Under the pieces are notes generated by a model, which was not told the DNA's origin, made no database searches, and was given only the letters and a program-made list of their open reading frames with translations. From assembly GCA_964019415.1 (NCBI GenBank), contig OZ025884.1:6100733-6164732 (forward strand): a DNA stretch of 64,000 bases, given 5' to 3'. The DNA comes from Ianthella basta (taxonomy: Eukaryota; Porifera; Demospongiae; Verongiida; Ianthellidae). A program made the position numbers and the translations under genes. Below, in pieces: positions 529 through 60,504 of the stretch; positions within the stretch are counted from its first letter, which is position 1; each line of letters begins with the position of its first letter.

Positions 529-1285
529 AGGTCACGTGGGGTAACTTCGCGAATGGGGCAACTTCGTAAACTTTGAATTCCAATGGCTGTAACTTCGCGA
601 TTGTACCGGCGATCTAGTTGTACTCTGGCACACAGCATGCTGACTTTATAGTGAATCATCCACCAGGGCTCTGAGCCGCTGCGATTCTTTCTTGCTGCGA
701 CAGGGGAGCAACTTGCGTTCCGGGTACTGCAAATTCAGCGAGAAAACTTTAGTTTTAGCTCTATCTCACTCAGCGCATGCAAAGCTGCAACAAAACGTAC
801 TCCATCAGTTACATATAACCTGTGTGTGGACTGCATTACCACTAGTAAGCCAGGTACGCACCAAAACGAGCAGTCTCAGGCTCGATCTTTCAAGTAGATG
901 GTACCGCATCAGGTATGCTGTCGAATGACGGCGTTATTAACCGTGTACAAGCTGATTTCGTATTGAATCCACACGAGAGATAGGCCACAGGCTCAGTTTC
1001 GTTGTCTAGTCCCATCTCCTCTACAATGAAGCCAATTCCTTCACCATTCCTCACACATTGCGGTATAGCCGCCATTTTCACGAAGTCACCCCACCTACTA
1101 TTTTACGATCGTGTCACATTTCTGCTGATATCTCAGGAAATATTAGCTCAATTCACTTCAGTTTTGGTGTACGCCTTGGCACTAGATGCCAGTAGCTGGA
1201 AAATAAGTCGGGCATTTGCCGCTTTTCAACTGTTGGAATTACGCGGCAATAGATTAAGTTTTCACGGAGTTACCCCATTTTACCT
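529..1285. mobile_element. Non-autonomous DNA transposon (MITE) with ~25-bp inverted ends
   Basis: Compared with the paralogous flanks (e.g. 3655-3672), 757 bp interrupt the segment between GAAATTTATTA and CCCGAGAAAA. The left end reads AGGTCACGTGGGGTAACTTC and the reverse complement of the right end reads AGGTAAAATGGGGTAACTCC, so the ends are imperfect inverted repeats. The flanks share TA (or TTA, depending on where the end is placed). That would suit a Tc1/mariner-type (TA) or PIF/Harbinger-type (TWA) element; the two cannot be separated here. There is no transposase ORF. Confidence 0.72.
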
Positions 1286-1359
1286 TACCCGAGAAAATAT
1301 TACGTCCACGGTAAACAGCCCAAATAAACAGGAACCTGTGAACACCTCCATTCCACCTC

Positions 1360-1367
1360 TATATAAG
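1360..1367 (+). promoter_or_regulatory. TATA box of relic copy 1
   Basis: TATATAAG lies 168 bp upstream of the relic ATG, at the same place as in the intact copies. The promoter therefore survives although the coding region is destroyed. Confidence 0.6.
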
Positions 1368-1527
1368 TAAGCAACACAAGAGCAACTTCACTCCCAGTTA
1401 CTTCAGAATACGAGAAAATCTCAAGAAGCGTCCTCCAGCAGTGCTTAGAGAGCAAAGCAGTTCTATTATTCACCACCAAGAAACAAAACATTACTGAGTG
1501 CTACCAAAGAGCAACCAGTCAATAGCC

Positions 1528-1685
1528 ATGAAGACAATTTCAGCTGCAGCCATCCTCGTCAGCTCACTCTGCCATGGTTCTGCAGAAAACTGCCGATAGA
1601 AGACATTGAGGTGCACCTGTGCCTCAACCAAGACCGAGGTGACGAAGACATCGGATTGGAGCTTCTCGAATTGATCATCCACTAA
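1528..1685 (+). pseudogene. Secreted Cys-rich family protein, copy 1: internally deleted relic
   Basis: The start is the family signal-peptide sequence [13 protein letters not shown]. After about 13 codons the sequence jumps to the region coding for the C-terminal PWFCR...DIEV segment, so about 550 bp are missing. The join is out of frame and a stop follows within about ten codons. The normal C-terminal codons (ending IIH and TAA) remain as a trace at 1683-1685. The 5' and 3' flanks match intact short-subtype copies closely, so this is a deletion derivative and not a processed copy. It is not expected to make a functional protein. Confidence 0.85.
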
Positions 1686-1913
1686 CCAATGAAGCTGTGA
1701 TAGTAAACACACATTGGTCATAACCTATTACTTCATTACTCTGAGCTGAACTGTAGTCACATTATGTCACACTCTAGTATGGCACGTTGATGTGTCATTA
1801 GTACAAACACATGTACATTGCTTTAGTTTGTATGGTGAATTTGATTGCAAGTGAACCGTTTCCTCTGCATGTCAGATAACCAAAGTGCTGAGGTGTATAT
1901 TATACAATGAAGC

Positions 1914-1949
1914 ATGCACATGCACATGCACATGCACATGCACATACGC

Positions 1950-2016
<67 letters not shown>

Positions 2017-2061
2017 TGCACATACACATACACACACATACACATACACGTACACATGCAC

Positions 2062-2116
<55 letters not shown>

Positions 2117-2124
2117 TACATATA
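1914..2124. repeat. (ACATAC/ACATGC)n hexanucleotide array
   Basis: About 210 bp of CACATA and CACATG hexamers lie about 230 bp 3' of relic copy 1. Long open frames here (HIHIHI, YTYTYT, CMCMCM) are artefacts of the repeat. Confidence 0.97.
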
Positions 2125-3115
<991 letters not shown>

Positions 3116-3737
3116 GCTGGTTGAAATATGTAGGAAAACAAATTTGGGCACGCATTTGAACACTTCCTGGGTCGACTACAGCACTGCAGTTAGGGAGGTG
3201 TTAGCGTGTGTGGGTCTGTGCATACAAATACACTTGAGTTTCTTTATAGCCAAGCTCTTCTGAGTTATGCATGTCCATGAAAATTAGTGAAACGTTTTCG
3301 CCGTATTCGCGGGGATCGTTACACCTCGATAATACGGTAGTCCACGAAATACACAACACATGAAACTCGCGATTCACCAGACCCCAAGGGACGGCTCGCC
3401 TAAGCAATCTCAAGACAGGCGATCGTGGAAATGGTGCAAGAAGCGGCAGTTGCGCAATCGTTGAAGAAGTTGGGCACTTATGAGGACGCTTCGATGCAAA
3501 GCCTGTGACGGTCGTGTTTCCTGTACGTCCTAGTATCTGCAGTGCTGCCACGAAGTGCAGTCAAGCCCACTCTCCACATAGTGGACGATTCCGTTTGAAA
3601 GTACTTTCGAGGAGCGTGCACCGAAAATATCCACGCAAAAAGGATCTTCCGCGCGAAATTTATTACCCGAGAAAATTTTACGTCCACGGTAAACAGCCTA
3701 AATAAACAGGAACCTGTGAACACCTCCATTCCACCTC

Positions 3738-3745: not shown

Positions 3746-3906
3746 TAAGCAACACAAGAGCAACTTCACTCCCAGTTCCTCCGGAATACGGGAAAATCTC
3801 AAGAAGCGTCCTCCAGCTGTGCTTACAAGAGCGAAGCCGTTCTATTATTTACCACTAAGAAACAAAACGTTACTGAGTGCTACCAAAGAACAACCAGTCA
3901 ATAGCC

Positions 3907-4614
3907 ATGAAGACAATTTCAGCTGCAGCCATCCTCGTCAGCTCAGTCTTGCTGTGCTCCATCTGCTATGCCGAGGGAGGCTGGAAGAGAGTGGCCTATT
4001 GGAACATGGCAGATAAACACACACACTGTCCAGCTCAGCTAAAAGAAACAAACCCTGGAAAGCGATTGTGCATCAAATCTGTATCCCGTGGGTGCACTTC
4101 ATTGCTGTACAAGACTCACGGAAAATCCTATAGTCACATTTGTGGCAGAATCAAGGGATATGCATACTACTCACCAGATGCCTTTGGACAACATACAGGA
4201 CCAAAGAATATTGACAGTGCCTACACAGACGGTGTGTCCATCACATATGGGAGCCCTCGTAAACACGTGTGGACCTACGCAGCAGGGCTGCAGGAGGAAG
4301 CTCACTTCCATGGTGATGCCTGTCCTTGTGGGAAGGTCCCTGGTAACCTACCACCATCTTTTGTCGGTGACAACTACTATTGTGAGTCTGCCAATCAAGG
4401 GCCTTGGGAGAGAAGATGGTATCTCCATGATCCCCTGTGGGATGGGCACGGCTGTCCCCATGGCAACAACTGCTGCGCTAATGCAGGTCTGCCGTGGTTC
4501 TGCAGGACACTGCCAGCAGCATCAAAGGAGGACATTGAGGTGCGCCTGTGCTGCAATGAAGACAGAAGCAACGAAGACATCGGATTGGAGCTTCTTGAAT
4601 TGATCATCCACTAA
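3907..4614 (+). CDS. Secreted Cys-rich protein, short subtype (copy 2, intact)
   Basis: Single-exon gene for 235 aa. The first ~22 residues form a signal peptide (hydrophobic [11 protein letters not shown], then CSICYA), so the product is probably exported. The start is the conserved MKTIS Met; the open frame extends ten codons upstream, but all family members share MKTIS. The mature part begins with GGWKRVAYWNMAD, followed by evenly spaced cysteines, [37 protein letters not shown], a CC pair, PWFCR, and a C-terminal DIEVRLCC with an acidic/leucine tail. GGW and the CP spacing recall fibrinogen-related domains, but the 59-residue N-terminal part present in the long copies is missing. I recall similar uncharacterised proteins in sponges and cnidarians; the function is unknown. 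It is nearly identical to copy 3, which lies inverted 3.6 kb away. A hexamer array starts 40 bp after the stop. Confidence 0.88.
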   Translation: MKTISAAAILVSSVLLCSICYAEGGWKRVAYWNMADKHTHCPAQLKETNPGKRLCIKSVSRGCTSLLYKTHGKSYSHICGRIKGYAYYSPDAFGQHTGPKNIDSAYTDGVSITYGSPRKHVWTYAAGLQEEAHFHGDACPCGKVPGNLPPSFVGDNYYCESANQGPWERRWYLHDPLWDGHGCPHGNNCCANAGLPWFCRTLPAASKEDIEVRLCCNEDRSNEDIGLELLELIIH

Positions 4615-8191: not shown

Positions 8192-8899
8192 TTAGTGGAT
8201 GATCAATTCGAGAAGCTCCAATCCGATGTCTTCGTTGCTTCTGTCTTCATTGCAGCACAGGCGCACCTCAATGTCTTCCTTTGATGCTATTGGCAGTTTT
8301 CTGCAGAACCACGGCAGACCTGCATTAGCACAGCAGTTGTTGCCATGGGGACAGCCGTGCCCATCCCACAGGGGATCATGGAGATACCATCTTTTCTCCC
8401 AATTCCCTTGATTGGCAGACTCACAATAGTAGTTGTTACCGACAAAAGATGGTGGTAGGTTACCAGGGACCTTCCCACAAGGACAGGCATCACCACGGTA
8501 GTTAGCTTCCTCCTGCAGCCCTGCTGCGTAGGTCCACACATGCTTGCGAGGGCTCCCATATGTGATGGACACACCGTCTGTGTAGGCACTGTCAATATTC
8601 TTTGGTCCTGTATGTTGTCCAAAGGCATCTGGTGAGTAGTATGCATATCCCTTGATTCTGCCACAAATTTGACTATAGGATTTTCCGTGAGTCTTGTACA
8701 GCAATGAAGTGCACCCACGGGATACAGATTTGATGCACAATCGCTTTCCAGGGTTTGTTTCTTTTAGCTGAGCTGGACAGCGTGTGTGTTTATCTGCCAT
8801 GTTCCAATAGGCCACTCTCTTCCAGCCTCCCTTGGCATAGCAGATGGAGCACAGCAAGAGTGAGCTGACGAGGATGGCTGCAGCTGAAATTGTCTTCAT
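8192..8899 (-). CDS. Secreted Cys-rich protein, short subtype (copy 3, intact)
   Basis: Single-exon gene for 235 aa, nearly identical to copy 2. It has the signal peptide [22 protein letters not shown] and then GGWKRVAYWNMAD, with the same cysteine pattern, [14 protein letters not shown] and DIEVRLCC. The start is the conserved MKTIS Met at 8899. Differences from copy 2 are scattered substitutions (e.g. NYRGD for HFHGD, KLPIAS for TLPAAS). The 5' and 3' flanks for more than 1.5 kb also match copy 2 in reverse, so copies 2 and 3 are arms of one inverted duplication with a loop of about 3.5 kb. The function is unknown; the reading frame is fully open and the TATA box is kept. Confidence 0.88.
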   Translation of the reverse strand: MKTISAAAILVSSLLLCSICYAKGGWKRVAYWNMADKHTRCPAQLKETNPGKRLCIKSVSRGCTSLLYKTHGKSYSQICGRIKGYAYYSPDAFGQHTGPKNIDSAYTDGVSITYGSPRKHVWTYAAGLQEEANYRGDACPCGKVPGNLPPSFVGNNYYCESANQGNWEKRWYLHDPLWDGHGCPHGNNCCANAGLPWFCRKLPIASKEDIEVRLCCNEDRSNEDIGLELLELIIH

Positions 8900-9061
8900 G
8901 GCTATTGACTGGTTGTTCTTTGGTAGCACTCAGTAACGTTTTGTTTCTTGGTGGGTAAATATTAGAACTGCTTCGCTCTTGTAAGCACAGCTGGAGGACG
9001 CTTCTTGAGATTTTCCCGTATTCCGAAGTAACTGGGAGTGAAGTTGCTCTTGTGTTGCTTA

Positions 9062-13334: not shown

Positions 13335-14151
13335 TGGGGGATGGGGTCAGGGGGACAAGGGGGACAAGGGGGACAGGGGGACAGGCGAGGGGACAGGTAA
13401 GAAGGGAGACAGGGGGACTAGGTGAGGGGGACAGGTGGGTGGGAGACAGAGGGACAGGGGGACGGGGAGATAGGTAGAACGATGGGGGACAGTTGAGGGG
13501 GATTGGGGGTCAGGGAGGACAGGGAGACAGGTGAGGGGGACATGTGGGAGAAGAGGGAAGGTGGTGAACCAGTGGGAGACAGGGTGACAAAGGCACACGG
13601 GGGACAGTTGGGGGGACAGGTGGGGGGACAGGTGGAAAGGGGGACAGGTGGGGGGACAGGTGGGTGGGTCAGGTGGAAGGGGGACAGGTGGGGGGACAGG
13701 TGAGGGGACAGGTGGAAGGGGGGACAGGTGGGGGGGCAGGTGGAAGGGGGGACAGGTGGGGGGACAGGTGGGTGGGACAGGTGGGTGGGACAGGTGGAAG
13801 GGGGGACAGGTGAGGGGGACAGATGGAAGGGGGACAGGTGGGGGACAGGTGGGGGACAGGTGGAAGGGGGGCAGGGGGGAGTGGGACAGGTGAAGGGGAC
13901 AGGTGGAAGGGGGACAGGTGGGGGGACAGGTGGGGGGACAGGTGGGGGACAGGTGGGGGGACAGGTGGGGGTGGGTGGGACAGGTGAGGGGGACAGGTGG
14001 AAGGGGGACAGGTGGGAGGACAGGTGGGGGGACAGGTGGGGGACAGGTGGAAGGGGGACAGGTGGGGGTGGGTGAGACAGGTGAGGGGGACAGGTGGAAG
14101 AGGGACAGGTGGGTGGGACAGGTGGGTGGGACAGGTGGAAGGGGGGACAGC
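13335..14151 (+). repeat. G-rich minisatellite (GGGGACAGGTG-type)
   Basis: About 817 bp of variable 10-20 bp units built on GGGGACAGGTGG and GGAAGGGGGACAGG. Runs of three to six G recur every few bases, so G-quadruplex formation on this strand is likely. The reverse strand reads as proline-rich open frames (PPVPPPVP), which are repeat artefacts. The array lies in the position of CCDC146 intron 27/26 in this degenerate copy. Confidence 0.95.
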
Positions 14152-16879: not shown

Positions 16880-17268
16880 CACATGTGCATACATTATCAC
16901 ACACACACACACACACACACACACATGCACTCAATCCCCACACAGTGCAAGTTACATACTTGCCTTACATGCACAGTGCTGCAACACTCGATCATGAACT
17001 ATTGAACAGCCATGGCATGAATGGTCTATATGCAATTTGACAAACCAACAGTCTTATTATATTGTGATCATACATGCAGAATATAATGTCAGGAAAACTG
17101 TCGACAGTGCATGAAACTGTGGGAAACACTGTACACAAGTCTCTATTCACCAACCTTTCTAAATTATTTGGAGTGCATTGTGGTCATATAATAAAGTTAG
17201 CACAATGTCAGGAAAACGGTTGGAAGTACATAAAATTTTGGGAAACTGTACACACATCTCTATTCACT
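16880..17268 (+). repeat. Duplicated block, left half of the interrupted site
   Basis: Matches 2370-2690 (and the inverse 10090-10460). It is cut at TTCACTAAAT and resumes at 19571 after nested insertions. There is no gene. Confidence 0.75.
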
Positions 17269-17408
17269 AAATTGAAATTGTTGCTTGAAGGATCACTGGG
17301 TTTACGCCACCAACCAACTACACCAGTATTGGTGTTACAGTTGGTTGGGAGGCCCAAAAGGCCCTATTAAGTTGGTAAGTTGGCAACCAGTGATTCCCTT
17401 CCCCCTAA

Positions 17409-17493
17409 CATCCTACAAAGATGGAAGAGCCACAGACAGCTGTTTCGCCCTAATTGGGGCTCATCAGTGTGGCGTACTGATGGTAATAGGATG
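17409..17493 (-). ncRNA. Hammerhead ribozyme, array unit 1
   Basis: Read on the minus strand. Outer stem I is CATCCTA/TAGGATG and inner stem I is GCCACA/TGTGGC, separated by an internal loop. Core CTGATGA is followed by stem II GCCC/GGGC with loop CAATTA, then core GAAA, a very short stem III (AC/GT) and the cleavage triplet GTC. Every invariant core base of the hammerhead is present. Confidence 0.9.
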
Positions 17494-17782
17494 AATGCCA
17501 CCTCCATATGTATCCACCACAAGCTAAAACACTTGTGGTTTCAACACATAGAAGCAGCATAAAATTAGGGGGAAGCCTCAGCCAAAAAGACGGCTGGAGT
17601 CAGGGTTGTTCAAAAGTGACTCTTGCAGTTAGGCCCCTGCAAAGGCTAGGTTTGTTGCTTGAAGGATCACTGGGTTTACGCCACCAACCAACTACACCAG
17701 TATTGGTGTTACAGTTGGTTGGGAGGCCCAAAAGGCCCTATTAAGTTGGTAAGTTGGCAACCAGTGATTCCCTTCCCCCTAA

Positions 17783-17867
17783 CATCCTACAAAGATGGAA
17801 GAGCCACAGACAGCTGTTTCGCCCTAATTGGGGCTCATCAGTGTGGCGTACTGATGGTAATAGGATG
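17783..17867 (-). ncRNA. Hammerhead ribozyme, array unit 2
   Basis: Identical structure to the copy at 17409-17493, exactly 374 bp downstream. Confidence 0.9.
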
Positions 17868-18156
17868 AATGCCACCTCCATATGTATCCACCACAAGCTA
17901 AAACACTTGTGGTTTCAACACATAGAAGCAGCATAAAATTAGGGGGAAGCCTCAGCCAAAAAGACGGCTGGAGTCAGGGTTGTTCAAAAGTGACTCTTGC
18001 AGTTAGGCCCCTGCAAAGGCTAGGTTTGTTGCTTGAAGGATCACTGGGTTTACGCCACCAACCAACTACACCAGTATTGGTGTTACAGTTGGTTGGGAGG
18101 CCCAAAAGGCCCTATTAAGTTGGTAAGTTGGCAACCAGTGATTCCCTTCCCCCTAA

Positions 18157-18241
18157 CATCCTACAAAGATGGAAGAGCCACAGACAGCTGTTTCGCCCTA
18201 ATTGGGGCTCATCAGTGTGGCGTACTGATGGTAATAGGATG
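18157..18241 (-). ncRNA. Hammerhead ribozyme, array unit 3
   Basis: Third direct copy, again 374 bp on. It lies in the spacer between the two pairing arms. Confidence 0.9.
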
Positions 18242-18547
18242 AATGCCACCTCCATATGTATCCACCACAAGCTAAAACACTTGCCAACTTACCAACTTAA
18301 TAGGGCCTTTTGGGCCTCCCAACCAACTGTAACACCAATACTGGTGTAGTTGGTTGGTGGCGTAAACCCAGTGATCCTTCAAGCAACAAACCTAGCCTTT
18401 GCAGGGGCCTAACTGCAAGAGTCACTTTTGAACAACCCTGACTCCAGCCGTCTTTTTGGCTGAGGCTTCCCCCTAATTTTATGCTGCTTCTATGTGTTGA
18501 AACCACAAGTGTTTTAGCTTGTGGTGGATACATATGGAGGTGGCATT

Positions 18548-18632
18548 CATCCTATTACCATCAGTACGCCACACTGATGAGCCCCAATTAGGGCGAAACA
18601 GCTGTCTGTGGCTCTTCCATCTTTGTAGGATG
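18548..18632 (+). ncRNA. Hammerhead ribozyme, inverted unit 1
   Basis: Plus-strand copy: CATCCTA 18548-18554, GCCACA 18568-18573, CTGATGA 18574-18580, stem II 18581-18594, GAAA 18595-18598, GTC 18604-18606 (predicted cut after 18606), TGTGGC 18607-18612, TAGGATG 18626-18632. Confidence 0.92.
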
Positions 18633-18921
18633 TTAGGGGGAAGGGAATCACTGGTTGCCAACTTACCAACTTAATAGGGCCTTTTGGGCCTCCCAACCAA
18701 CTGTAACACCAATACTGGTGTAGTTGGTTGGTGGCGTAAACCCAGTGATCCTTCAAGCAACAAACCTAGCCTTTGCAGGGGCCTAACTGCAAGAGTCACT
18801 TTTGAACAACCCTGACTCCAGCCGTCTTTTTGGCTGAGGCTTCCCCCTAATTTTATGCTGCTTCTATGTGTTGAAACCACAAGTGTTTTAACTTGTGGTG
18901 GATACATATGGAGGTGGCATT

Positions 18922-19006
18922 CATCCTATTACCATCAGTACGCCACACTGATGAGCCCCAATTAGGGCGAAACAGCTGTCTGTGGCTCTTCCATCTTTGT
19001 AGGATG
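18922..19006 (+). ncRNA. Hammerhead ribozyme, inverted unit 2
   Basis: Second plus-strand copy, 374 bp after the first, with all stems and the core unchanged. Confidence 0.9.
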
Positions 19007-19188
19007 TTAGGGGGAAGGGAATCACTGGTTGCCAACTTACCAACTTAATAGGGCCTTTTGGGCCTCCCAACCAACTGTAACACCAATACTGGTGTAGTTG
19101 GTTGGTGGCGTAAACCCAGTGATCCTTCAAGCAACAAACCTAGCCTTTGCAGGGGCCTAACTGCAAGAGTCACTTTTAAATTGAAATT

Positions 19189-19570
19189 GAAATGATTTTA
19201 TCCCCGTAGGGAAAGGGTTGCACGAGAGGCAAATTGCCTATGATTGTGCTCCCCTAAGACGTACATTTACAATACAGGACAATAATACAACAGGGGGTGT
19301 AGGGAATGATGGAGCAAAGGTGATAGTAAATAAAACAGAGAGAATTTAACTAAGTGGGCAAGTAAGTAAATAGATTGACAGTTAAGATTCATTCAGCAAA
19401 AATTTGGTGAGGCAGAGTTTAAAAGTGGGTAAGGATGAGAATTGAATCAGATTTGGTGGCAGTTCATTCCAGGTAAAGGGGGCATTTACAAAATAGGAAA
19501 AGCGAAATGCATTGATGCGGGATTGTGGAATTGACAGAGAGTAAGGGTGAGATCTAAGGGGCCTAAATCT
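19189..19570 (-). mobile_element. LINE 3' fragment (CR1/L2-like)
   Basis: On the minus strand the frame ending at 19382 reads FTWNELPPNLIQ, then FKLCLTKFLLNES and stop. This is the WN-x-LP ... FK-x-x-L tail typical of CR1/L2-type LINE reverse transcriptases. It is followed by about 190 bp of 3' UTR and a tail of TTTCAA units. The 5' part is missing, as usual for LINE copies. The retrozyme array lies within its TTTCAA tail. The host site is intact at about 2695 and 10090 (inverse). Confidence 0.8.
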
Positions 19571-21772: not shown

Positions 21773-21933
21773 TGAGCAACACAAGAGCAACTTAACTCCC
21801 AGTTACTTCGGAATACGGGAAAATCTCAAGAAGCGTCCTCCAGCTGTGCTTACAAGAGCGAAGCCGTTCTATTATTTACCACCAAGAAACAAAACGTTAC
21901 TGAGTGCTACCAAAGAACAACCAGTCAATAGCC

Positions 21934-22641
21934 ATGAAGACAATTTCAGCTGCAGCCATCCTCGTCAGCTCACTCTTGCTGTGCTCCATCTGCTATGCCG
22001 AGGGAGGCTGGAAGAGACTGGCCTATTGGAACATGGCAGATAAAAACACACGCTGTCCACCTCAGCTAATAGAAACAAACCCTGGAAAGCGATTGTGCAT
22101 CAAATCTGTATCCCGTGGGTGCACTTCATTGCTGTACAAGACTTACGGAACGTCCTATAGTCAAATTTGTGGCAGAATCAAGGGTTATGCATACTTCTCA
22201 CCAGATGCCTTTGGACAACATACAGGACCAAAGAATATTGACAGTGCCTACACAGACGGTGTGTCCATCACATATGGGAGCCCTCGTAAACACGTGTGGA
22301 CCTACGCAGCAGGGCTGCAGGAGGACGCTAACTTCCATGGTGATTCCTGTCCTTGTGGGAAGGTCCCTGGTAACCTACCACCATCTTTTGTCGGTGCCAA
22401 CTACTATTGTGAGTCTGCCAATCGAGGAGGCTGGGAGAGAAGATGGTATCTCCATGATCCCCTGTGGGATGGGCATGGCTGTCCCCATGGCAACAACTGC
22501 TGTGCTAATGAAGATCAGCCGTGGTTCTGCAGAAATCTGCCAATAGGATCAAAGGGAGACATTGAGGTGCGCCTGTGCCTCAACCAAGACCGAAGCGATG
22601 AAGACATCGGATTGGAGCTTCTAGAATTGCTCATCTACTAA
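21934..22641 (+). CDS. Secreted Cys-rich protein, short subtype (copy 5, intact)
   Basis: Single-exon gene for 235 aa with the family signal peptide, GGWKRLAYWNMAD, the full cysteine scaffold, [17 protein letters not shown] and DIEVRLCLNQDR. The second cysteine of the C-terminal CC pair is Leu here. It is the most diverged short copy (RGGWERR, ANEDQPWFCR, LPIGSKGD). The start is the conserved MKTIS Met. The upstream region is interrupted by a Ginger-like element and, further out, by the retrozyme/LINE insertion. A hexamer array follows 230 bp after the stop. Function unknown; export is inferred from the signal peptide. Confidence 0.88.
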   Translation: MKTISAAAILVSSLLLCSICYAEGGWKRLAYWNMADKNTRCPPQLIETNPGKRLCIKSVSRGCTSLLYKTYGTSYSQICGRIKGYAYFSPDAFGQHTGPKNIDSAYTDGVSITYGSPRKHVWTYAAGLQEDANFHGDSCPCGKVPGNLPPSFVGANYYCESANRGGWERRWYLHDPLWDGHGCPHGNNCCANEDQPWFCRNLPIGSKGDIEVRLCLNQDRSDEDIGLELLELLIY

Positions 22642-26461: not shown

Positions 26462-28086
26462 TGTGGGGGCAGATGGGGAACAGGTGGGTGGGACAGGGGG
26501 CAGGGGACAGGGGGGAATGTGGTGAACCAGTGGGAGGACAGGGTGACAAGGGGACGAGGGGAATAGGTGGGGGGACAGGTGAGTAGGACAGGTGGAAGGG
26601 GGACAGGTGGGTGGAACAGTGGGGGATGGGGGACAGGGGGACAAGGGGGACAGGCGAAGGGTCAGGTAAGAAGGGAGACGGAGTACTAGGTGAGGGGGAC
26701 AGGTGGGGGACAGGTGGGTAGGAGACAGGGGTACAGGGGGACAGGGGGAAGGGGAGATAGGTAGAAGGATGGGGGACAGGGGGACAGGTGAGGGAGAATT
26801 GGGGGTCAGGGAGGACAGGGAGACAGGTGATGTGGGAGAAGGGGGGAAGGTGGTGAACCAGTGGGGGGACAGGTGGAAGGGGTACAGGTGGGTGGGACAG
26901 TGGGGGATGGGGTCAGGGGGACAAGGGGGACAAGGGGGACAGGGGGACAGGCGAGGGGACAGGTAAGAAGGGAGACAGGGGGACTAAGTGAGGGGGACAG
27001 GTGGGTGGGAGACAGGGGTACAGGGGGACAGGGGGAAAGGGAGATAGGTGGAAGGACGGGGACAGGGGGACAGGTGAGGGGGAATTGGGGGTCAGGGAGG
27101 ACAGGGAGACAGGTGAGGGGGACATGTGGGAGAAGGGAGGAAGGTGGTGAATCAGTGGGGGGACAGGGTGACAAGGGAACGAAGGGGACAGGTGGGGGGA
27201 CAGGTGGAAGGGGGGCAGGTGGAAGGGGGGACAGGTGAGTGGGACAGTGGGGGATGGGGTCAGGGGGACAAGGGGGACAAGGGGGACAGGGGGACAGGCG
27301 AGGGGACAGGTAAGAAGGGAGACAAGGGGGACTAGGTGAGGGGGACAGGTGGGTGGGAGACAGAGGGACAGGGGGACAGGGGGACGGGGAGATAGGTAGA
27401 AGGATGGGGGACAGTTGAGGGGGGATTGGGGGTCAGGGAGGACAGGGAGACAGGTGAGGGGGACATGTGGGAGAAGAGGGAAGGTGGTGAACCAGTGGGG
27501 GACAGGGTGACAAGGGCACACGGGGGACAGTTGGGGGGACAGGTGGGGGGACAGGTGGAAGGGGGGCAGGTGGGGGGACAGGTGAGGGGACAGGTGGAAG
27601 GGGGGACAGGTGGGGGGTCAGATGGAAGGGGGACAGGTGGGTGGGACAGGTGGGTGGGACAGGTGGGTGGGACAGGTGGAAGGGGGGACAGGTGGGTGGG
27701 ACAGGTGAGGGGGACAGGTGGAAGGGGGGACAGGTGGGTGGGACAGGTTGAAGGGGGGACAGGTGGGTGGGACAGGTGAGGGGGACAGGTGGAAGGGGGA
27801 CAGGTGGGTGGGACAGTGGAGGGACAGGGGGACGGGTAGTCTAGCATTCTAGACCGCCTCCAGGGCACTTGTGGGACAGGGGGACAGGTGGGGGGGACAG
27901 GTGGGGGGACAGGGGACAGGTGGGTGGGGGGAAAGGGGACAGGGGACAGGTGGGTGGGGCAGTGGGGGGACAGGGGGACAGGTAAGGACAGGTGGGGTGG
28001 ACAGTTGGGGGAACAGATGAGGTGACAGGTGGGCGGGACAGGGGGGGCCACAAGGGGGGCAGGAGGACATGGGGACAGGTGAGGGG
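26462..28086 (+). repeat. Large G-rich minisatellite (GGGGACAGGTG-type)
   Basis: About 1.6 kb of GGGGACAGG-based units, the same family as 13335-14151. It shows higher-order repetition: a ~300-bp pattern containing GGTGGTGAACCAGTGGG recurs about four to five times between 26515 and 27500. It lies between exon 28 and exon 27 copies of CCDC146, i.e. inside intron 27 of the degenerate paralogue; the parent intron 27 (38223-38536) lacks it. Long proline-rich open frames on the minus strand are artefacts. Confidence 0.95.
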
Positions 28087-35131: not shown

Positions 35132-35287
35132 AAAGCTGAATCAGAGCAACTTCGGTCTAGTTACTTACAAGAGAATCTCAAGAATCGCCTTCCAACACTA
35201 CTTAGAAGAGTGAAACAGTTCGGCTGTCTTCAGCACCAAGAAACAAAACACTATTGAACGCTACCAAAGAACAGCCAGACAAGAGCC

Positions 35288-36172
35288 ATGAAGACAATTT
35301 CAGCTGCAGCCATCCTCGTCAGCTCAGTCCTTCTGTGGCAGTGTTCCATCTGCTACGGAGAGACACCTTGTCCGGGCCTCAGCTTCACCACCCCAGCCAC
35401 CTCCTGCAGAGCGATACATGAGTGCAATCCAAATGCTGAATCAGGGTATTACTGGCTGATCACTGGAATTCCTCCGGCAGTGGCTGTGTCAAGGCAGTAT
35501 TGTGACATGGAAACAAGTCACGGTGGTATCAAGGGAGGCTGGATGAGAGTGGCCTATTGGAACATGGCAGATAGTCAAACAACGTGCCCAATTCAGCTGA
35601 CAGAAACAAACCCTGGAAAGCGATTGTGCATCAAATCTGTATCCAGTGATTGCACTTCACTGCTGTACAGTACCCACGGAAAGTCCTATAGTCGCATTTG
35701 TGGCAGAGTCAAGGGATATGCATACAACTCACCAGATGCTTTTGGCTACCATACAGGACCAAAGAATATTGACAGTGCCTACACAGACGGTGTGTCCATC
35801 ACATATGGGAGCCCTCGTAAACACGTGTGGACCTACGCAGCAGGGCTGCAGGAGGACGCTAACTTCCATGGTGATTCCTGTCCTTGCGGGATAGTCCCTG
35901 GTAACCTACCGCCATCTTTTGTTGGTGACAACTACTATTGTGAGTCCGCCAATCAAGGGCCTTGGGAGAGAAGATGGTATCTCCATGATCCCTTGTGGGA
36001 TGGACATGGCTGTCCCCGTGGCAACAACTGCTGCGCTAATGCAGGTCTGCCATGGTTCTGCAGGACACTGCCAGCAGCATCAAAGGAAGACATTGAGGTG
36101 CGCCTGTGCTGCAACCAAGACCGAGGTGACGAAGACATCGGATTGGAGCTTCTAGAATTGCTCATCCAGTAA
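35288..36172 (+). CDS. Secreted Cys-rich protein with fibrinogen-like N-terminus, long subtype (copy 6)
   Basis: Single-exon gene for 294 aa. Residues 1-24 are a signal peptide. Residues 39-95 ([35 protein letters not shown]) follow the order seen at the start of fibrinogen-related and collagen C-propeptide-like domains: SC-x-x-I, a GYYW block, CDM, GGW. The rest (C100 to C275) is a lineage-specific part with DGVSITYG (167-174), [10 protein letters not shown] (177-186), CPC (198-200), DPLWDGHGC (234-242), CC (248-249), PWFC (255-258) and C274/C275. Seventeen cysteines lie in the predicted mature chain, so an extracellular disulfide-bonded protein is likely. It lies between relics of CCDC146 exons 14 and 13 on the opposite strand, the same position as copy 7 in the intact gene. 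Ligand and role are unknown. Confidence 0.9.
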   Translation: MKTISAAAILVSSVLLWQCSICYGETPCPGLSFTTPATSCRAIHECNPNAESGYYWLITGIPPAVAVSRQYCDMETSHGGIKGGWMRVAYWNMADSQTTCPIQLTETNPGKRLCIKSVSSDCTSLLYSTHGKSYSRICGRVKGYAYNSPDAFGYHTGPKNIDSAYTDGVSITYGSPRKHVWTYAAGLQEDANFHGDSCPCGIVPGNLPPSFVGDNYYCESANQGPWERRWYLHDPLWDGHGCPRGNNCCANAGLPWFCRTLPAASKEDIEVRLCCNQDRGDEDIGLELLELLIQ

Positions 36173-45710: not shown

Positions 45711-48700
45711 GATGCATCATAGCCTCTGCCTCATTGATCTTTGTCAGCAGTCTGGAGATGGCCCCACGCTGCACACAGTACAAGGCAATACTAGAACATG
45801 ATACAAAGCATACATGCGTAAGTGCATGCATACCCTCCCCAAAGAAGGGACCACTCAAGTGCCCTAGGATGACTAGTCCCTGTACACGACTACCAAGGCA
45901 CTGCCACTACCTGCTGTTCCAGTTCTGCAGATAGGCCTGCTTGTTGGTTGACTTGCTTCCCAAAATCCTGTCGAAGGGTGTCCCTCTCCATCACCTTGTG
46001 ACTCTGTACCAGCGCACACTTCTGCAGGAGACGTTCCTTGTTGTCCACAGCTGTACGGAGGATCTCTATCTCATTGTCTAACACTCGCACCTTCTCCTGC
46101 AGCTCTGCTGCAAGCTGGGCTCATGGAGGGGGAGGAGGGAAGTCAAAGGCAGGGTAGTGAGGTGGGGAGGGAGAGGAGGAGGGGAGGGAGAGGAGGAGGG
46201 GGCGGAGAGTGAAGTGGGGAGGGAGGTATGGAAGGAAAGGGGAGTTAACAGTGTGGAAAGGAGTAGTACAGGGAACACAGTAGAATTGAGAGAGAAAATA
46301 CTGTAGCTAGCAAGCATCATGGTTGCTGATTACCTGAGAGGCATGTTGGATCAATGTAATTGTCTTGTTCCTCTCACTCTTGACCAACTCATATGCCGAA
46401 GAGAAATCCTTCAACCTTCACACAACACGACAGGGTGAGACAGCAATGTGAACTGTCTGTTGCACACATACTGTACACACAGTGTGTATCCTGTATCATA
46501 CGATCATATAAAGACACTGATACAAGCACAGGTGACCAGCAGAGCACTCACTTTGCTTCCAAGTGGCTCAGGGTCTTTGCATTCTCTTCTAACAAGTTCT
46601 GTTTTGACTTGAGGGTGTCCATCATACGCCACTTAGAGGACTGAGGAGAGAGGCAGCAAACAAGAACACAACAGAACCTAGTGCAACAGATATAGCTACG
46701 TACGTAAATGCCTGAATGAAGCAGTTCAGAGTGTTCTGATGTAAAGTACAATAGCAGAGGAACTCAGACAGTCTCAAGAGGTCTAACAGAGAGTATTACC
46801 TCTGCCTTCTGCAGTTCTTTGGCCTCCTTATCCCTCTCCTTGGTGCGACTGACCATCTCCTTCTTGATGTCAGCCAGCTTGCCCTGCCACGACTTCACCT
46901 GGGCCTTCAAACGGTGTTCTGCCTCCACCTGACGCTCCACCTTGCTTCGCTCAGCATCCTCCAGGCCAGCCTGTGTGTGGGTGTTGCATGTGGAATTGTA
47001 CAGTTGAGTGTGGGTCGATGAAGGTGAAGTGGAAGCCATGGCATCATGCAGCAGAAACAGAGAAAGCAGCTAGACAAAGACATACGTACTACAACATGTC
47101 ATGGCATGCACTACAGCTGGGCAGGCAACAAGTCAATGAATATACCATTCTACAATACCAGCTGACCCACCCACTCACCTGTGTAGCTACCCAGTGCCTG
47201 ATCTGGTCCAGGTCACCCCTCACTTCCTCCAACCGTGCCCCATTCTCACCCACTAGGGTAACAGACATCTCACGCTGCACAACACATCACATAAACCAAC
47301 AACACCTCAAGATGGTACACAGTATGTAGTATTTATACACATAATTGCATATGTGCACGTCATACTGTCTTACACCAACTACGTATACAACTCGCTCACT
47401 GTGTGTTGGCGAGGTGGTATGATGGGTTTGTGTGGTACGTAGGTGTGTTGGGGGTGGTGTGTGGGGAGTTTGGGGTAGTTTGGTGAGGGTAGGGAAGTGT
47501 GCTGAGTTGTGTGAGATATGGAGCACTGCCTACCTTTTCCTGTAGTCCAGCAAGTACAGTTGTCTGTTGTTCCACCGCCTCTTGCAGCACTCGCAACTGG
47601 AGCTCACCTGCCTTGGCCAGCCTATAGAGAGAAGAGAGAGATGGAGAGATGAAGAGATGAAGAAGGATGGAGAAAGAGAAACAATGCTCAAAGATGTATA
47701 AAATCTTGCTTTATTCAACAAACATATACACTACAGAGTGAATGTGCAACATTGGGGCAACTCGAACATGTGTGGCTGACTTCAGTAAGCAAGAGACAAG
47801 AGTGCTTTCATTGAAGGAATAAGGCATCAAGGGTGGGAGCACACAGAGGATTCAGTCAAATGTAAGGGCAAGTATCTAACCTTGTGCACCTGGCAGAGTC
47901 ACATAAGTTGGAGTAAGTGATAGGGTGCATAGCAGGGGCTGGTTGGGCACAGAAGGGTTGCACAGGAAGTGTTTACAGTAAACAGCCTCAATACACAGAG
48001 AATCTGTAAACACTTTACCTCTATATAAGTAGCTGTGTGAGAGCAACTTCAGTCCAAGCTACTTCAGAAGAATCTCAAGAAGTGCCTACAGCATTGCTTA
48101 GAAGAGTGGAATAGTTGTCTTCACCGTCCAGATACAAAACACTACTGAGCGCTACCAAAGAACAACCAGACAAGAGCCATGAAGACAATTTCGGCTGCAG
48201 CCATCCTCGTCAGCTCAGTCCTTCTGTGGCAGTGTTCGGTCTGCTATGGAGAGACACCCTGTCCGGGCCTCAGCTTCACCACCCCAGCCACCTCCTGCCG
48301 AGCGATATATGAGTGCAATTCAAAAGCTGCATCAGGGTATTACTGGCTGATCACTGGAATTCCTCCGGCAGTGGCTTTGTCAAGGCGGTATTGTGACATG
48401 GAAAGAACTTACGATGGGATAAAGGGAGGCTGGATGAGAGTGGCCTTTTGGAACATGGCAGACAGATACACACACTGTCCAGCTCGGCTGACAGAAACAA
48501 ACCCTGGAAAGCGATTGTGCATCAAATCTGTATCCACTGGGTGCACTTCACTGCTGTACAGTACCCACGGAATGTACTATAGTCGCATTTGTGGCAGAGT
48601 CAAGGGATACGCATACTGCTCACCAGATGCCTTTGGACAAGATACAGGACCAAAGAATATTGACAGTGCCTACACAGATGGTGTATCCATCACATATGGG

Positions 48701-51063
48701 AGGTCTCGTAAACACGTGTGGACCTACGCAGCAGGGCTGCAGGAGGACGCTAACCACCATGGTGATGCCTGTCCTTGCGGGAAAGTTCCTGGTAACCTAC
48801 CACCTTACTTTGTTGGTGACAACTACTATTGTGAGTCTGCCAATCAAGGGCCTTGGGAGCCAAGGTGGTATCTCCATGATCCCTTGTGGGATGGACACGG
48901 CTGTCCCCGTGGCAACAACTGCTGCGCTAATGCAGGTCTGCCGTGGTTCTGCAGGACACTGCCAACCGAAACAAAAGAAGACATTGAGGTGCGACTGTGC
49001 TGCAACCAAGACCGAGGTGACGAAGACATTGGACTGGAGCTTCTAGAATTGCTCATCTACTAACCAATAAAACTGTGATAGTACACACACATTGGTCATA
49101 ACATTCACTATTACTTCATTACTCTGAGCTTAACTGTAGTCACATTATGTCACACTCTAGTATGGCACATCGATGATTTGTTAGTGCAAACATTTTGCTT
49201 TAACTTGTATGGTGAGTTTGATTGTGAATTAACCACCTCTTTCGCATGTCATATGGCCAAGCTGCACTGAAGTGTGCACAGCAGTATCAACATCATCGCC
49301 TACATACCCATACACATACACCCCATGTGGTATGATTTCAACACAGATTCATACATGGAAACCCAACTAAACTGAACTCATGACTACCTCCTTGTACACA
49401 TAGACTACATTTACATGAAGCACTTGTGAGGACAAAACAGGCAGGCTCACAGACAAATTATAGATAGATGGGGAGACAGACAGACAGGTACGTAGAGAGA
49501 TAGGTAGACAGACGGGTAGACAGACTGGTAGACAGACTGGCAGACACAGTGCATGACAGCCAGGAGGTCTCACTTCATACTCCTGTTCTTCTCCTTCAAC
49601 CTGCTGCTGACTGTTTCGTGCAGGGTTTTCCACTCCCCCACACGATGCCGCAGCTGCAGCTCATGAGTGGCCCTGTAGTGGCAGTGGTGGTACACCTAGT
49701 CCACTGTATAGACAAGCAACACACCACACACACATGCAAGCAGCATGCACACTCATGAGTCACCCCTGATCCCCACCTCTCTTCAAGTAGTGTAGCCTCC
49801 CTCTCCTTCTCTGCATCACCATCTTTCTTTAGCCTCTCTAAATCATATTGCTGGACAGCCAGAAGCAGTATGACAGGATATGATGGAAATAACCACATAA
49901 TATGTAAATTTATTGCACACATGTGCCATACACACCATCTTCTCTGAAGACTTCTTTGCTTCCACCTTTTCCTTCTCATGTCTGGTTTTACTCATGACCA
50001 GGTCATTGACAGTCTGCACCAGCTCAGAGATCTACATACGTACATATAAAGATAGTAGGAGCAAGTGGCAATAAGAAAACACAGCAGTGTGATGCAGTAA
50101 GTGCATTGTGCCTGCTGATACAAAGACACACCTCCTGCTCTGTTTCATTCAACTGCTTTTCCTTTTCAGATTTAGCGTTCTCAATACCACTGTAGAGAAT
50201 GGAAGGAAGAAGCTGCAATACTGAGCAAGGTCATACAGTAGACAGCATTCACCTGCATGTTTGGAACAGGCAATGGGTCCACACAGCACTCCATGTCACC
50301 AGCTACTGATGAACGCATGCACTCACATCATCTCCTTCTTCATGGCTTCAATCTCCTTGGCGAGCGCTTGAGGCCCACTGCGCACCTTCACCAAGTCATC
50401 CTGCAAGGCCAGAACAGAAGTGATTGAGGGAGAAGGAAACACACAGCCACATAGCACCCTCCTCCTATAACCAAACGGCTGTGAAATCATGGACTCCAAC
50501 TGCTCACACCTTCAGGCTATTCTCTGCCTGCTCCAAGTCTGTCAGTTCTGCCTTTAGCTGGTCCATCTTCTTCTGCTGGGTAACCATCTCATCCTTCAGG
50601 TGCGTCACATCCTCCCAGCCCTGTGCGTCACATATGCACATACATACACACATCACATACGTACAAGCACAAACACCATCAGAGTACTGTACCTAATCTA
50701 TACCATGTGTAATCACATACTGGCTGTCTTTCCCAACAAAGACCACACCATCCACTGCACATACCTTCTTGACACTGAATTGAAGCTCTTCCACCTCATT
50801 AGTCAGCTCTCTCATCTTCTGCTCTGCATCCTACCAAAACCACCACGGGACAGACAACAGATGGCAGAGGAGAGCATTGCTCCATAATGTCACATGTATT
50901 AGACAGAGTTGTGAAAGAGCAACCTCTTGTAGTGTTTACCTCTGGCTTGGGTTGCCGCTGGATCTCACTCTCCACTTCTTTCTTCTCCTCCATCAACCTA
51001 GGCAGGGGAAGTACGTATGTATGCATATTATGCATTATATTGCATTATACTACTCAGAGCTGC

Positions 51064-56185: not shown

Positions 56186-57091
56186 TTAGTAGATGAGCAA
56201 TTCTAGAAGCTCCACTCCAATGTCTTCGTCACGTCGGTCTTGGTTGCAGCACAAGCGCACCTCAATGTCTTCCTTTGATGCTGCTGGCAGTGTCCTGCAG
56301 AACCACGGCAGACCTGCATTAGCACAGCAGTTGTTGCCATGGGGACAGCCATGCCCATCCCACAGGGGATCATGGAGATACCACCTTGGCTCCCAAGGTC
56401 CTTGATTGGCAGACTCGCAATAGTAGTTGTCACCAACAAAGGATGGTGGTAGGTCACCAGGGACTTTCCCACAAGGACAGGAAAGACCACGGTAGTTAGC
56501 TTCCTCCTGCAGCCCTGCTGCATACGTCCACACGTGCTTACGAGAGCTCCCATATGTGATGGACACACCATCTGTGTAGGCACTGTCAATATTCTTTGGT
56601 CCGGTAGCAATAGCACCAAAGGCATCTGGTGAGTAGTATGCATATCCCTTGATTCTGCCACAAATGCGACTATAGGACATTCCGTGGGTACTGTACAACA
56701 GTGAAGTGCAACCACTAGATGTAGATTTGGTGCACAATCGCTTTCCAGGGTTTGTATATCTCAGCCGAGTTGGGCACCTTGTTTGACTATCTGCCATGTT
56801 CCAATAGGCCACTCTCATCCAGCCTCCCTGGATACCGCAGTGACTTGTTTCCATATCACAATACTGCCTTGACAAGGACACCGCCGGAGGACTTCCAGTG
56901 ATCAGCCAGTAATACCCTGATGTAGCCTTTGGATTGCACTCATATATCGCTCGGCAGGAAGTGGCTGGGTTGGTGTAGCTGAGGCCCAGCCACTGACAGA
57001 CAGACTGGCAAGGTGTGTGTCCGTAGCAGACAGAACACTGCCACAAAAGGACTGAGCTGATGAGAATAGCTGCAGCTGAGAATGTCTTCAT
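56186..57091 (-). CDS. Secreted Cys-rich protein, long subtype with 7-residue insert (copy 8)
   Basis: Single-exon gene for 301 aa. After the signal peptide ([24 protein letters not shown]) it has HTPCQSVCQWLGLSYTN, seven residues longer than the other long copies and adding a cysteine. Then come [58 protein letters not shown] and DIEVRLCC as in the family. The frame is fully open. It follows CCDC146 exon 11-13 relics. Function unknown; probably secreted. Confidence 0.9.
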   Translation of the reverse strand: MKTFSAAAILISSVLLWQCSVCYGHTPCQSVCQWLGLSYTNPATSCRAIYECNPKATSGYYWLITGSPPAVSLSRQYCDMETSHCGIQGGWMRVAYWNMADSQTRCPTRLRYTNPGKRLCTKSTSSGCTSLLYSTHGMSYSRICGRIKGYAYYSPDAFGAIATGPKNIDSAYTDGVSITYGSSRKHVWTYAAGLQEEANYRGLSCPCGKVPGDLPPSFVGDNYYCESANQGPWEPRWYLHDPLWDGHGCPHGNNCCANAGLPWFCRTLPAASKEDIEVRLCCNQDRRDEDIGVELLELLIY

Positions 57092-57255
57092 GGCTTTTGT
57101 CTGGTTGTTCTTTGGTAGCGCTCAATAGTGTTTTGTTGCTTGGCAGTGAAGACAGCAGAACTGTTCCACTCTTCTAAGCACTGCTGGAGGATGCTTCTTG
57201 AAGATTCTCTTGTATTCTGAAGTAACTTGGACTGAAGTTGCTCTTACGTGGCTTT

Positions 57256-59064: not shown

Positions 59065-59959
59065 TTAGTAGATGAGCAATTCTAGAAGCTCCAATCCGAT
59101 GTCTTCATCCCCTCGGTCTTGGTTGCAGCACAGGCGCACCTCAATGTCTGCCTTTGTTACGGTTGGCAGTGTCCTGCAGAACCACGGTAGACCTGCACTA
59201 GCGCAGCAGTTGTTGCCACGGGGACAGCCGTGTCCATCCCACAGGGGATCGTGGAGATACCATCTTGGCTCCCAAGGCCCTTGATTGGCAGACTCACAAT
59301 AGTAGTTGTTACCGACAAAGGAAGGTGGTAGCCTACCAGGGCTCATTGTGCAAGAACAGGAATTACCTCCACCATTACCGTCCTCCTGCACACCTGCTGC
59401 ATACGTCCACACATGTTTGCGAGGCCTCCCATAGGTGATGGACACACCATCCATGTATCCATTGTCAATATTGTTTGGTCCTGTAACTGGCCCAAAGGCA
59501 TCTGTAGAGGCGTATTGGTATCCCTTTACTCTGCCACAAATGCGACTATAGGACATTCTATGCTATATGGGTACTGTACAGCAGTGAAGTGCAACCACTG
59601 GATACAGATTTGGTGCACAATCGCTTTCCAGGGTTTGTTTCTGTCAGCCAAGTTGGGCACCTTGTTTGCCTATCTGCCATGTTCCAATAGGCCACTCTCA
59701 TCCAGCCTCCCTTGATACCGCAGTGACTTCTTTCCATGTCGCAATACCGCCTCGACAAGGATGTTGCTGGAGGATTTCCAGTGATCAGCCAGTAATACCC
59801 TGATGCAGCATTTGGATTGCACTCATGTATCTCTCGGCATGAAGTGGCTGCAGTGCTTGAGCGCAGACCCAGCTGACAGGGCGTCTCTCCATAGCAGATG
59901 GAACACTGCCACAGCAGGACTGAGCTGACAAGGATGGCTGCAGCTGAAATTGTCTTCAT
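59065..59959 (-). pseudogene. Secreted Cys-rich protein, long subtype, frameshifted (copy 9)
   Basis: From the ATG at 59959 the frame has signal peptide, [28 protein letters not shown] and GGWMRVAYWNMAD. It breaks at about 59560-59570, where CAT-ATA-GCA-TAG replaces the CAC-GGA found in relatives: a net gain of 7 nt gives an immediate stop. The downstream part resumes in another frame at MSYSRICG and stays open to the normal stop (59065). Apart from this lesion the scaffold is intact, so inactivation is recent or a sequencing error. The TATA box (60123-60130, minus) is kept. The central region is the most diverged of the long copies (NGGGNSCSCTMSPGR). Confidence 0.82.
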
Positions 59960-60122
59960 GGTCTTGATTGGTTGTTCCTTGGTAGCGCTCAGTATAGTGT
60001 TTAGTCTCTTGGAGGTGAAGACAGCAGAACTGTTCCACTCATCTAAGCAGTGCTGAAAGTGCTTCTTGAGAATCTCTTGTATTCTGAAGTAGTTTGGAAT
60101 GAAGTTGCTCTTGCACGGCCTA

Positions 60123-60130
60123 CTTATATA
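60123..60130 (-). promoter_or_regulatory. TATA box, family copy 9
   Basis: TATATAAG on the minus strand, about 164 bp upstream of the ATG at 59959. Confidence 0.6.
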
Positions 60131-60504
60131 GGAGTAGAGTTGAGGCGTTTACAGATTCTCTGTGGTCAGAACCTTCCCATGCATCTTCTTGGTCATAGCC
60201 AATCAGCCATCTCTCCTGTGCACCTCACCCTTTGCTCCAGCCTGTATGACTCTGCCACACCACCTAATTTCATTTAAACAGTTTGATATCTTTGGTGATG
60301 TACTTACTCCAACTTCTCTCCTCTGTGTACTTCCTCTCCTGATGCCCTGGACAGTGGTCCGTCAAAGAAAGTTTGTTGTGTACTGAAGTCAGCTACATGC
60401 TTTTGAGTTGATCCAGCATTGCATCGGCAGTCTGTACCTATCATGGTTTGATAGGCTACTTCCTGTATCATTATTTATGTGCACCTGATGAAAACTGGTG
60501 AAGC

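What the first reader, a model, noticed from the sequence alone, without database searches (positions are those of the whole stretch)
17269..19188. 374-bp tandem array with five complete type I hammerhead ribozymes: a retrozyme-like element
Seen: each full unit has core CTGATGA and GAAA, stem II GCCC/GGGC, inner stem I GCCACA/TGTGGC, outer stem I CATCCTA/TAGGATG across an internal loop, and a GTC cleavage triplet. Spacing is exactly 374 bp. Known: animal retrozymes are tandem repeats of a few hundred bases with type I hammerheads and short stem III, copied through circular RNA. Inferred: transcripts should self-cleave into 374-nt monomers that may circularise.
Basis: partly seen in the sequence, partly recalled or inferred. 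Interest (0 to 1): 0.92.

Follow-up and report, generated by a model that had tools for sequence, protein, structure and literature searches.

The report
Inverted ribozyme array inserted Penelope-style
A tiny jumping element that carries a self-cutting RNA was copied into this chromosome several times over in both directions, and the marks it left suggest that a Penelope-type reverse transcriptase did the copying, probably from an RNA circle.

Summary
The five type I hammerheads are real (Rfam, 40.1 bits each), but this is not one direct tandem. It is a head-to-head inverted array: 2.7 units on the minus strand (17278-18283, three ribozymes) meet 2.4 units on the plus strand (18281-19180, two ribozymes). 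A 13-bp target-site duplication flanks it at 17268-17280 and 19177-19189. The 374-bp spacing holds only within each arm.

I analysed 36 independent loci of this genome, the window included; 24 are two-armed. In 23 of 24, one outer end lies at unit ~101-119 (site A) and the other at ~152-164 (site B). None is A/A or B/B. Resident Penelope-like elements show the same rule in 11 of 12 inverted pairs read by eye. A purified lizard Penelope enzyme extends both target strands and starts at two adjacent internal RNA sites (PMC11167929).

Cleavage, circularity and the helper enzyme are inferred. In the texts I saw, Penelope help for retrozymes is only proposed.

The parts
17268..17280 (.). Left copy of the 13-bp target-site duplication TAAATTGAAATTG; its last 3 bases also match the element end
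   Evidence: the sequence occurs only twice in the window
17278..18283 (-). Left arm: about 2.7 units of 374 bp, sense on the minus strand; outer end at unit position 109 (site A), inner end at unit 226
18281..19180 (+). Right arm: about 2.4 units, sense on the plus strand; outer end at unit position about 149-152 (site B), inner end at unit 1
18281..18283 (.). Inner junction, 3-bp overlap where the two arms meet head to head
17429..17473 (-). Type I hammerhead 1
   Evidence: RF00163, 40.1 bits
17803..17847 (-). Type I hammerhead 2
   Evidence: RF00163, 40.1 bits
18177..18221 (-). Type I hammerhead 3
   Evidence: RF00163, 40.1 bits
18568..18612 (+). Type I hammerhead 4; predicted cut after 18606 (unit position 326)
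   Evidence: RF00163, 40.1 bits; cut position from the GTC triplet
18942..18986 (+). Type I hammerhead 5; predicted cut after 18980
   Evidence: RF00163, 40.1 bits
18380..18393 (+). Predicted single-stranded stretch holding start site A (unit 100-113) in one full unit
   Evidence: circular fold: mean unpaired probability 0.99 at unit 104-111
18425..18438 (+). Predicted hairpin loop holding start site B (unit 145-158) in one full unit
   Evidence: circular fold: mean unpaired probability 0.90 at unit 153-157
19177..19189 (.). Right copy of the 13-bp target-site duplication; the right flank is the end of a dispersed repeat

Best explanation
The array is one insertion of a non-autonomous, non-LTR retrozyme made by Penelope-type retrotransposition. 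Inferred: transcripts cut themselves with the hammerhead and are closed into a 374-nt circle; a Penelope-type reverse transcriptase with GIY-YIG endonuclease opens an AT-rich target with a stagger; both exposed 3' ends then prime cDNA on the same RNA, one in loop A and the other in loop B about 45 nt away, helped by a short match to the target; each copies from part of a lap to about three laps, often stopping at a strong stem, and the two cDNAs are joined in the middle. Shown by sequence: inverted arms, fixed and always different outer ends, target-site duplications, variable inner junctions, the cut site crossed but not used as an end, and the same end rule in resident Penelope-like elements.
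For: 23 of 24 independent two-armed loci have one A and one B end, 0 have two alike. Target-site duplications of 9 bp or more: 25 of 35 loci, against 4 of 1190 mispaired-flank controls; AT content 0.72 in the duplications, 0.58 in flanks. Resident Penelope-like elements with RVT_1 and GIY-YIG show the same rule in 11 of 12 pairs. A purified lizard Penelope enzyme cleaves and extends both strands and starts at two internal sites that bound the tail (PMC11167929). A and B are both in predicted loops; 37 of 56 arms exceed one unit, 48 of 56 exceed what a cut linear monomer allows; 70 cut-site crossings, 0 of 56 ends within 3 nt of it; 20 of 56 inner ends fall in unit 76-108, 4.9 expected. The two arms agree at 147 of 156 subfamily-informative comparisons, shuffled partners at 59% on average, at most 81% in 1000 shuffles.
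Against: No RNA or enzyme data. 12 of 36 loci are one-armed and L045 has an end outside A and B; 10 of 35 loci have no duplication of 9 bp. The A-B stretch of the retrozyme was found only in retrozymes, not in Penelope-like elements, although only 40 of 158 candidates were scored. Whole-unit comparison of the two arms was inconclusive: own partner closest in 2 of 23, tied in 7, another locus closer in 14; L047 disagrees at 3 of 3 informative sites. An uncleaved multimer could replace the circle. The lizard study found no homology between start site and target, whereas I see short matches, and its hammerhead was not needed for insertion in vitro. The hammerhead of the resident Penelope-like elements is a motif match only; Rfam did not report it at E 0.05.
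Confidence: 0.77

Rival explanations
1. A LINE mobilises the retrozyme by target-primed reverse transcription, and the inverted arms are ordinary twin priming.
For: LINEs are also proposed helpers (PMC7229834 Discussion); duplications of 9-16 bp and microhomology at the ends would fit LINE insertion too. 12 of 36 loci are one-armed.
Against: 24 of 36 loci are two-armed, and 23 of those use two fixed internal start sites, one each. That matches the Penelope tail structure and the resident Penelope-like elements. LINE insertions of this genome were not examined.
Confidence: 0.12
2. Satellite DNA or a foldback DNA transposon: tandem units multiplied and inverted by recombination, with no RNA step.
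For: A much larger array of the same unit lies on C22, and L046 is a large palindrome including flank.
Against: Target-site duplications at dispersed loci, two outer ends that differ in each array, variable inner junctions and part-unit arms.
Confidence: 0.05
3. Assembly artefact: a chimeric read made a false inversion.
For: Palindromes can be artefacts; L046 may be one.
Against: In the window the arms are unequal (1006 and 900 bp), end at different unit positions, differ by one base and are enclosed by a duplication. The same layout recurs at 23 other loci.
Confidence: 0.03
4. Penelope-type insertion, but from a linear uncleaved multimer and not from a circle.
For: Cut-site crossings alone do not show a circle; axolotl retrozyme RNAs include dimers and trimers (PMC7229834); the lizard study favoured unprocessed RNA as the dominant substrate.
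Against: Circles of retrozyme RNA are abundant in the animals tested (PMC7229834), and ends at the cut site, expected if cut multimers were copied, are absent (0 of 56).
Confidence: 0.25

Closest known systems
Metazoan non-LTR retrozymes (Cervera and de la Pena 2020, PMC7229834)
   Same: Type I hammerhead, unit within 170-400 nt, GC under 50% (0.479), multimeric copies, duplications longer than 4 bp, highly folded RNA, co-occurrence with Penelope-like elements carrying minimal hammerheads.
   Different: That paper describes tandem copies; the word inverted does not occur in its main text. Here the two-armed inverted form is the commoner one among the loci analysed (24 of 36), with fixed mixed outer ends.
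Penelope-like elements of the Penelope/Poseidon type (PMC11167929; PMC3846280; resident L086, L088-L098)
   Same: Head-to-head inverted copies, target-site duplications, a tail present on one of the two inverted ends, two adjacent start sites, AT-rich targets, hammerheads; sequences can be moved in trans.
   Different: The retrozyme encodes no protein; its A-B stretch is about 45 nt against about 34 nt in L088, with no sequence match found; the hammerhead is a full type I and not the minimal form.
Plant LTR retrozymes (PMC4918200, passages)
   Same: Hammerhead retroelement without coding capacity, thought to pass through a circular RNA.
   Different: Plant ones have LTRs, 4-bp duplications and type III hammerheads.

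Membership tests
Metazoan non-LTR retrozyme | Type I hammerhead in each unit | tested here: met
   Five RF00163 matches above gathering score; exact core in 19 of 36 independent loci
Metazoan non-LTR retrozyme | Non-coding unit of about 170-400 bp in multimeric copies | tested here: met
   374 bp; no stop-to-stop frame of 150 aa or more overlaps the array
Metazoan non-LTR retrozyme | Target-site duplications longer than 4 bp | tested here: met
   13 bp in the window; 9 bp or more in 25 of 35 loci
Metazoan non-LTR retrozyme | No LTR, primer binding site or polypurine tract | not tested
   No search was made for a primer binding site or polypurine tract
Metazoan non-LTR retrozyme | Self-cleavage and circular RNA of unit length | not testable with these tools
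   No RNA data; 70 cut-site crossings and 0 of 56 ends at the cut are only indirect
Penelope-type insertion (mode of mobilisation, not membership) | Priming from both target strands, giving inverted head-to-head arms | tested here: met
   24 of 36 independent loci two-armed, minus arm left and plus arm right
Penelope-type insertion (mode of mobilisation, not membership) | Two adjacent internal start sites, the tail on one of the inverted ends | tested here: met
   23 of 24 two-armed loci have one A and one B end; resident elements 11 of 12 pairs
Penelope-type insertion (mode of mobilisation, not membership) | Start region related to that of a resident Penelope-like element | tested here: inconclusive
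   All 42 matches to the A-B stretch are retrozymes, but 40 of 158 candidates were scored and not all GIY-YIG loci were fetched
Penelope-like element (as a member) | Open frame with reverse transcriptase and GIY-YIG endonuclease | tested here: not met
   No such frame in the array; so it is not itself a Penelope-like element

The most novel reading that the evidence does not exclude
Each insertion is made by a two-headed machine: the two protomers of one Penelope-type enzyme sit on one and the same ribozyme-made RNA circle, each on its own start loop, and run round it from opposite sides of the target break. The result is an inverted rolling-circle array with exactly one A end and one B end.
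Probability: 0.42. Interest if true: 0.78.

Novelty: new variant of a known kind. Interest (0 to 1): 0.65.

Why it matters
In the texts I saw, what moves animal retrozymes is a proposal: LINEs or Penelope-like elements, the latter favoured because both carry hammerheads and occur together. Here the insertions themselves carry a Penelope-like footprint, in a genome whose resident Penelope-like elements obey the same one-of-each end rule. That makes the proposal directly testable, names the two start sites, and gives a record of how far each arm was copied and where it stopped. The strict pairing of the two sites also bears on how Penelope enzymes work: the lizard study, looking at start sites as a whole, reported no apparent difference between top and bottom strands.

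Tried and rejected
Direct tandem satellite: does not fit the strand switch and the duplications. Foldback transposon: the two outer ends differ and the inner junctions vary. A shared start region with resident Penelope-like elements: not found, search not exhaustive. Whole-unit comparison of the two arms: inconclusive; only subfamily-informative sites gave a clear answer. Relatives in viral contigs: one pattern, 0 matches. Rfam on Penelope-like loci at E 0.05: no hammerhead reported, so those ribozymes rest on a motif. Whole-genome RF00163 search: 18 matches, 13 over the cut-off, the window's own five not among them, since only 73 candidates were scored.

Literature: seven searches of the held library. 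None of the listed titles or abstract openings, and none of the passages I opened, reports inverted arrays of animal retrozymes; the search for hammerhead ribozyme with sponge and Porifera gave 0 papers. Seven papers were opened. PMC8490949 mentions inverted repeats inside Schistosoma W-elements, some of which carry type I hammerheads, flanking small-RNA parts. Subscription papers and preprints are not held; (two papers on hammerheads in Penelope-like elements, known to me from reference lists) were not held, so those were not read.

Rows dropped: L060 and L061 as duplicates of L059 and L058; the second half of the L046 palindrome, and L046 altogether from the duplication counts; L072, L074, L075 and the 45-nt arm of L045 from the arm-end counts; L060, L061, L072, L074, L075 and arms under 70 nt; L054, L058, L069 and L071 (4 of the 25 loci with a duplication) from the end-match test. 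Of the C22 array only L037 was fetched, and it was not analysed. The limits of sites A and B and the 76-108 bin were set after seeing the ends. The 12 Penelope-like pairs were my choice (six short ones, the rest already at hand) and were read by eye. Loci come from the listed, stronger part, so weak copies are under-sampled.

Full report
WHAT IS THERE. The window holds five type I hammerheads at 40.1 bits each, three on the minus strand and two on the plus strand. The array is two arms of one 374-bp unit meeting head to head: 17278-18283 (minus) and 18281-19180 (plus), overlapping by 3 bp at the turn. Compared with themselves 374 bp away, the left arm has 0 mismatches and the right arm 1. A 13-bp direct repeat, found only twice in the window, encloses the array at 17268-17280 and 19177-19189. 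No stop-to-stop frame of 150 aa or more overlaps it.

THE UNIT. Counting from window 18281, the predicted cut is after unit position 326. Stem III is ACAG/CUGU in the Rfam alignment; I read it as two pairs capped by a palindromic AGCU, which resembles what PMC7229834 describes for invertebrates. The 374-nt RNA folds far better than its shuffles (z -7.5, 100 shuffles); the ribozyme stretch on its own does not (z -0.93).

THE FAMILY. The unit has 207 matches in this genome of 209 Mb and 96 contigs, of which only part is listed. I took 37 stretches (20, 17) and analysed them with the window copy, 38 in all. Two are duplicates, leaving 36: 24 two-armed, always with the minus arm left and the plus arm right, and 12 one-armed. 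An exact ribozyme core occurs 39 times, in 19 of these 36 loci.

FIXED OUTER ENDS. Outer ends lie at two places: site A near ...CCTTCAAGCAACAAA and site B near ...CACTTTTGAACAAC. Of the 24 two-armed loci, 23 have one end of each kind, none has two alike, and L045 has one end elsewhere; A is on the left in 13 and B in 10. If each arm chose independently and evenly, 23 of 23 would have a chance of about 1e-7 (my arithmetic). Both sites lie in predicted single-stranded loops (mean unpaired probability 0.99 and 0.90, against 0.37 overall).

TARGET SITES. Exact duplications of 9 bp or more occur in 25 of 35 loci, against 4 of 1190 pairings of flanks from different loci; 19 of 22 two-armed loci have one. 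In 21 loci with a clear duplication, 32 of 42 ends share 2 or more bases with the target, against 22% when targets are swapped. In L056, L059 and L071 the target is a 35-bp minisatellite; for L056 and L059, joining the flanks on one duplication copy looks in phase by eye. In the window the right flank belongs to a dispersed repeat, and most of its other listed copies begin within a few bases of the duplication. No intact empty site was found in that search.

INNER ENDS. Of 56 arms, 37 are longer than one unit, 48 are longer than a cut linear monomer would allow, and 9 exceed two units. The cut site is crossed 70 times, and 0 of 56 ends lie within 3 nt of it. 20 of 56 inner ends fall in unit 76-108, where 4.9 are expected; this is just before a strong predicted stem that ends at unit 82, as if the enzyme paused there. 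Of 24 inner junctions, 12 overlap by 1-15 bp, 5 abut and 7 carry 1-16 extra bases.

ONE TEMPLATE? At nine subfamily-informative sites the two arms agree in 147 of 156 comparisons and successive units in 261 of 272; shuffled partners agree in 59% on average and at most 81% in 1000 shuffles. Against this, L047 disagrees at 3 of 3 sites, and a comparison over whole units was inconclusive: own partner closest in 2 of 23, tied in 7, another locus closer in 14. So the arms come from the same subfamily; that they come from one molecule is likely but not shown.

RESIDENT PENELOPE-LIKE ELEMENTS. A GIY-YIG search gave 55 matches, a number of them as minus/plus pairs. L088 holds an 844-aa frame with RVT_1 and GIY-YIG. 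A minimal hammerhead-like motif of these elements occurs 97 times, with 0 in the reversed control; Rfam did not report it in the loci tested at E 0.05. Of 12 inverted pairs read by eye (L078 with L079, L086, L088, L089, L090, L091, L093-L098), 11 have one long and one short end and L094 has one end outside both sites. The tail is 34 nt in L088.

OTHER RETROZYMES. Two loci of related but distinct retrozymes, L002 and L006, show by eye the same layout: mixed ends, a 14-bp duplication each, and a hairpin-forming stretch between the two sites.

LITERATURE. PMC11167929 (parts 1 and 2 of 4 of the text): a purified lizard Penelope enzyme cleaves and extends both strands, prefers AT-rich targets and starts at two internal sites that bound the tail; its hammerhead was not needed for insertion in vitro. 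PMC3846280 (passages): inverted pseudo-LTRs, short duplications, a 31-bp tail on one of them, mobilisation in trans. PMC7229834 (abstract, parts 1 and 2 of Results, Discussion, passages): animal retrozymes and their circles, Penelope-like elements proposed as helpers. PMC7761336, PMC8490949, PMC4918200 and PMC11722881: passages only.

VERDICT. A genuine retrozyme carrying a clear footprint of Penelope-type, double-primed insertion. Cleavage, the circle and the identity of the helper remain inferred.

Noticed in passing
G000:C22:2908410-2932669; L037 covers part: A far larger, satellite-like set of copies of the same unit, mostly minus-strand on the left and plus-strand on the right, with units of differing length (about 366, 335 and 281 bp).
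   Followed up: no
L046 (G000:C4:3405700-3410300), 1172-3415: A two-armed retrozyme and its flank repeated as a large palindrome; a real duplication or an assembly artefact.
   Followed up: partly
L056, L059, L071 flanks: Several retrozyme insertions sit in a 35-bp minisatellite (CTTACCTTGTCATATCTTGCC...), perhaps a favoured target.
   Followed up: partly
L002, L006; also L001, L003, L005, L007: Other retrozymes of the genome share the hammerhead region with this one but differ elsewhere; L002 and L006 show the same mixed-end layout.
   Followed up: partly
window 3877-4614, 8192-8929, 21904-22641, 35258-36172, 48149-49063, 56186-57121, 59065-60148: A cluster of similar secreted-looking proteins of about 245-311 aa in tandem and inverted copies; one gave only a weak, sub-cut-off match to the fibrillar collagen C-terminal domain.
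   Followed up: no
window 13343-14138 and 26570-28083: GGGGGACAGGTG-type minisatellites, long and G-rich on the plus strand.
   Followed up: no
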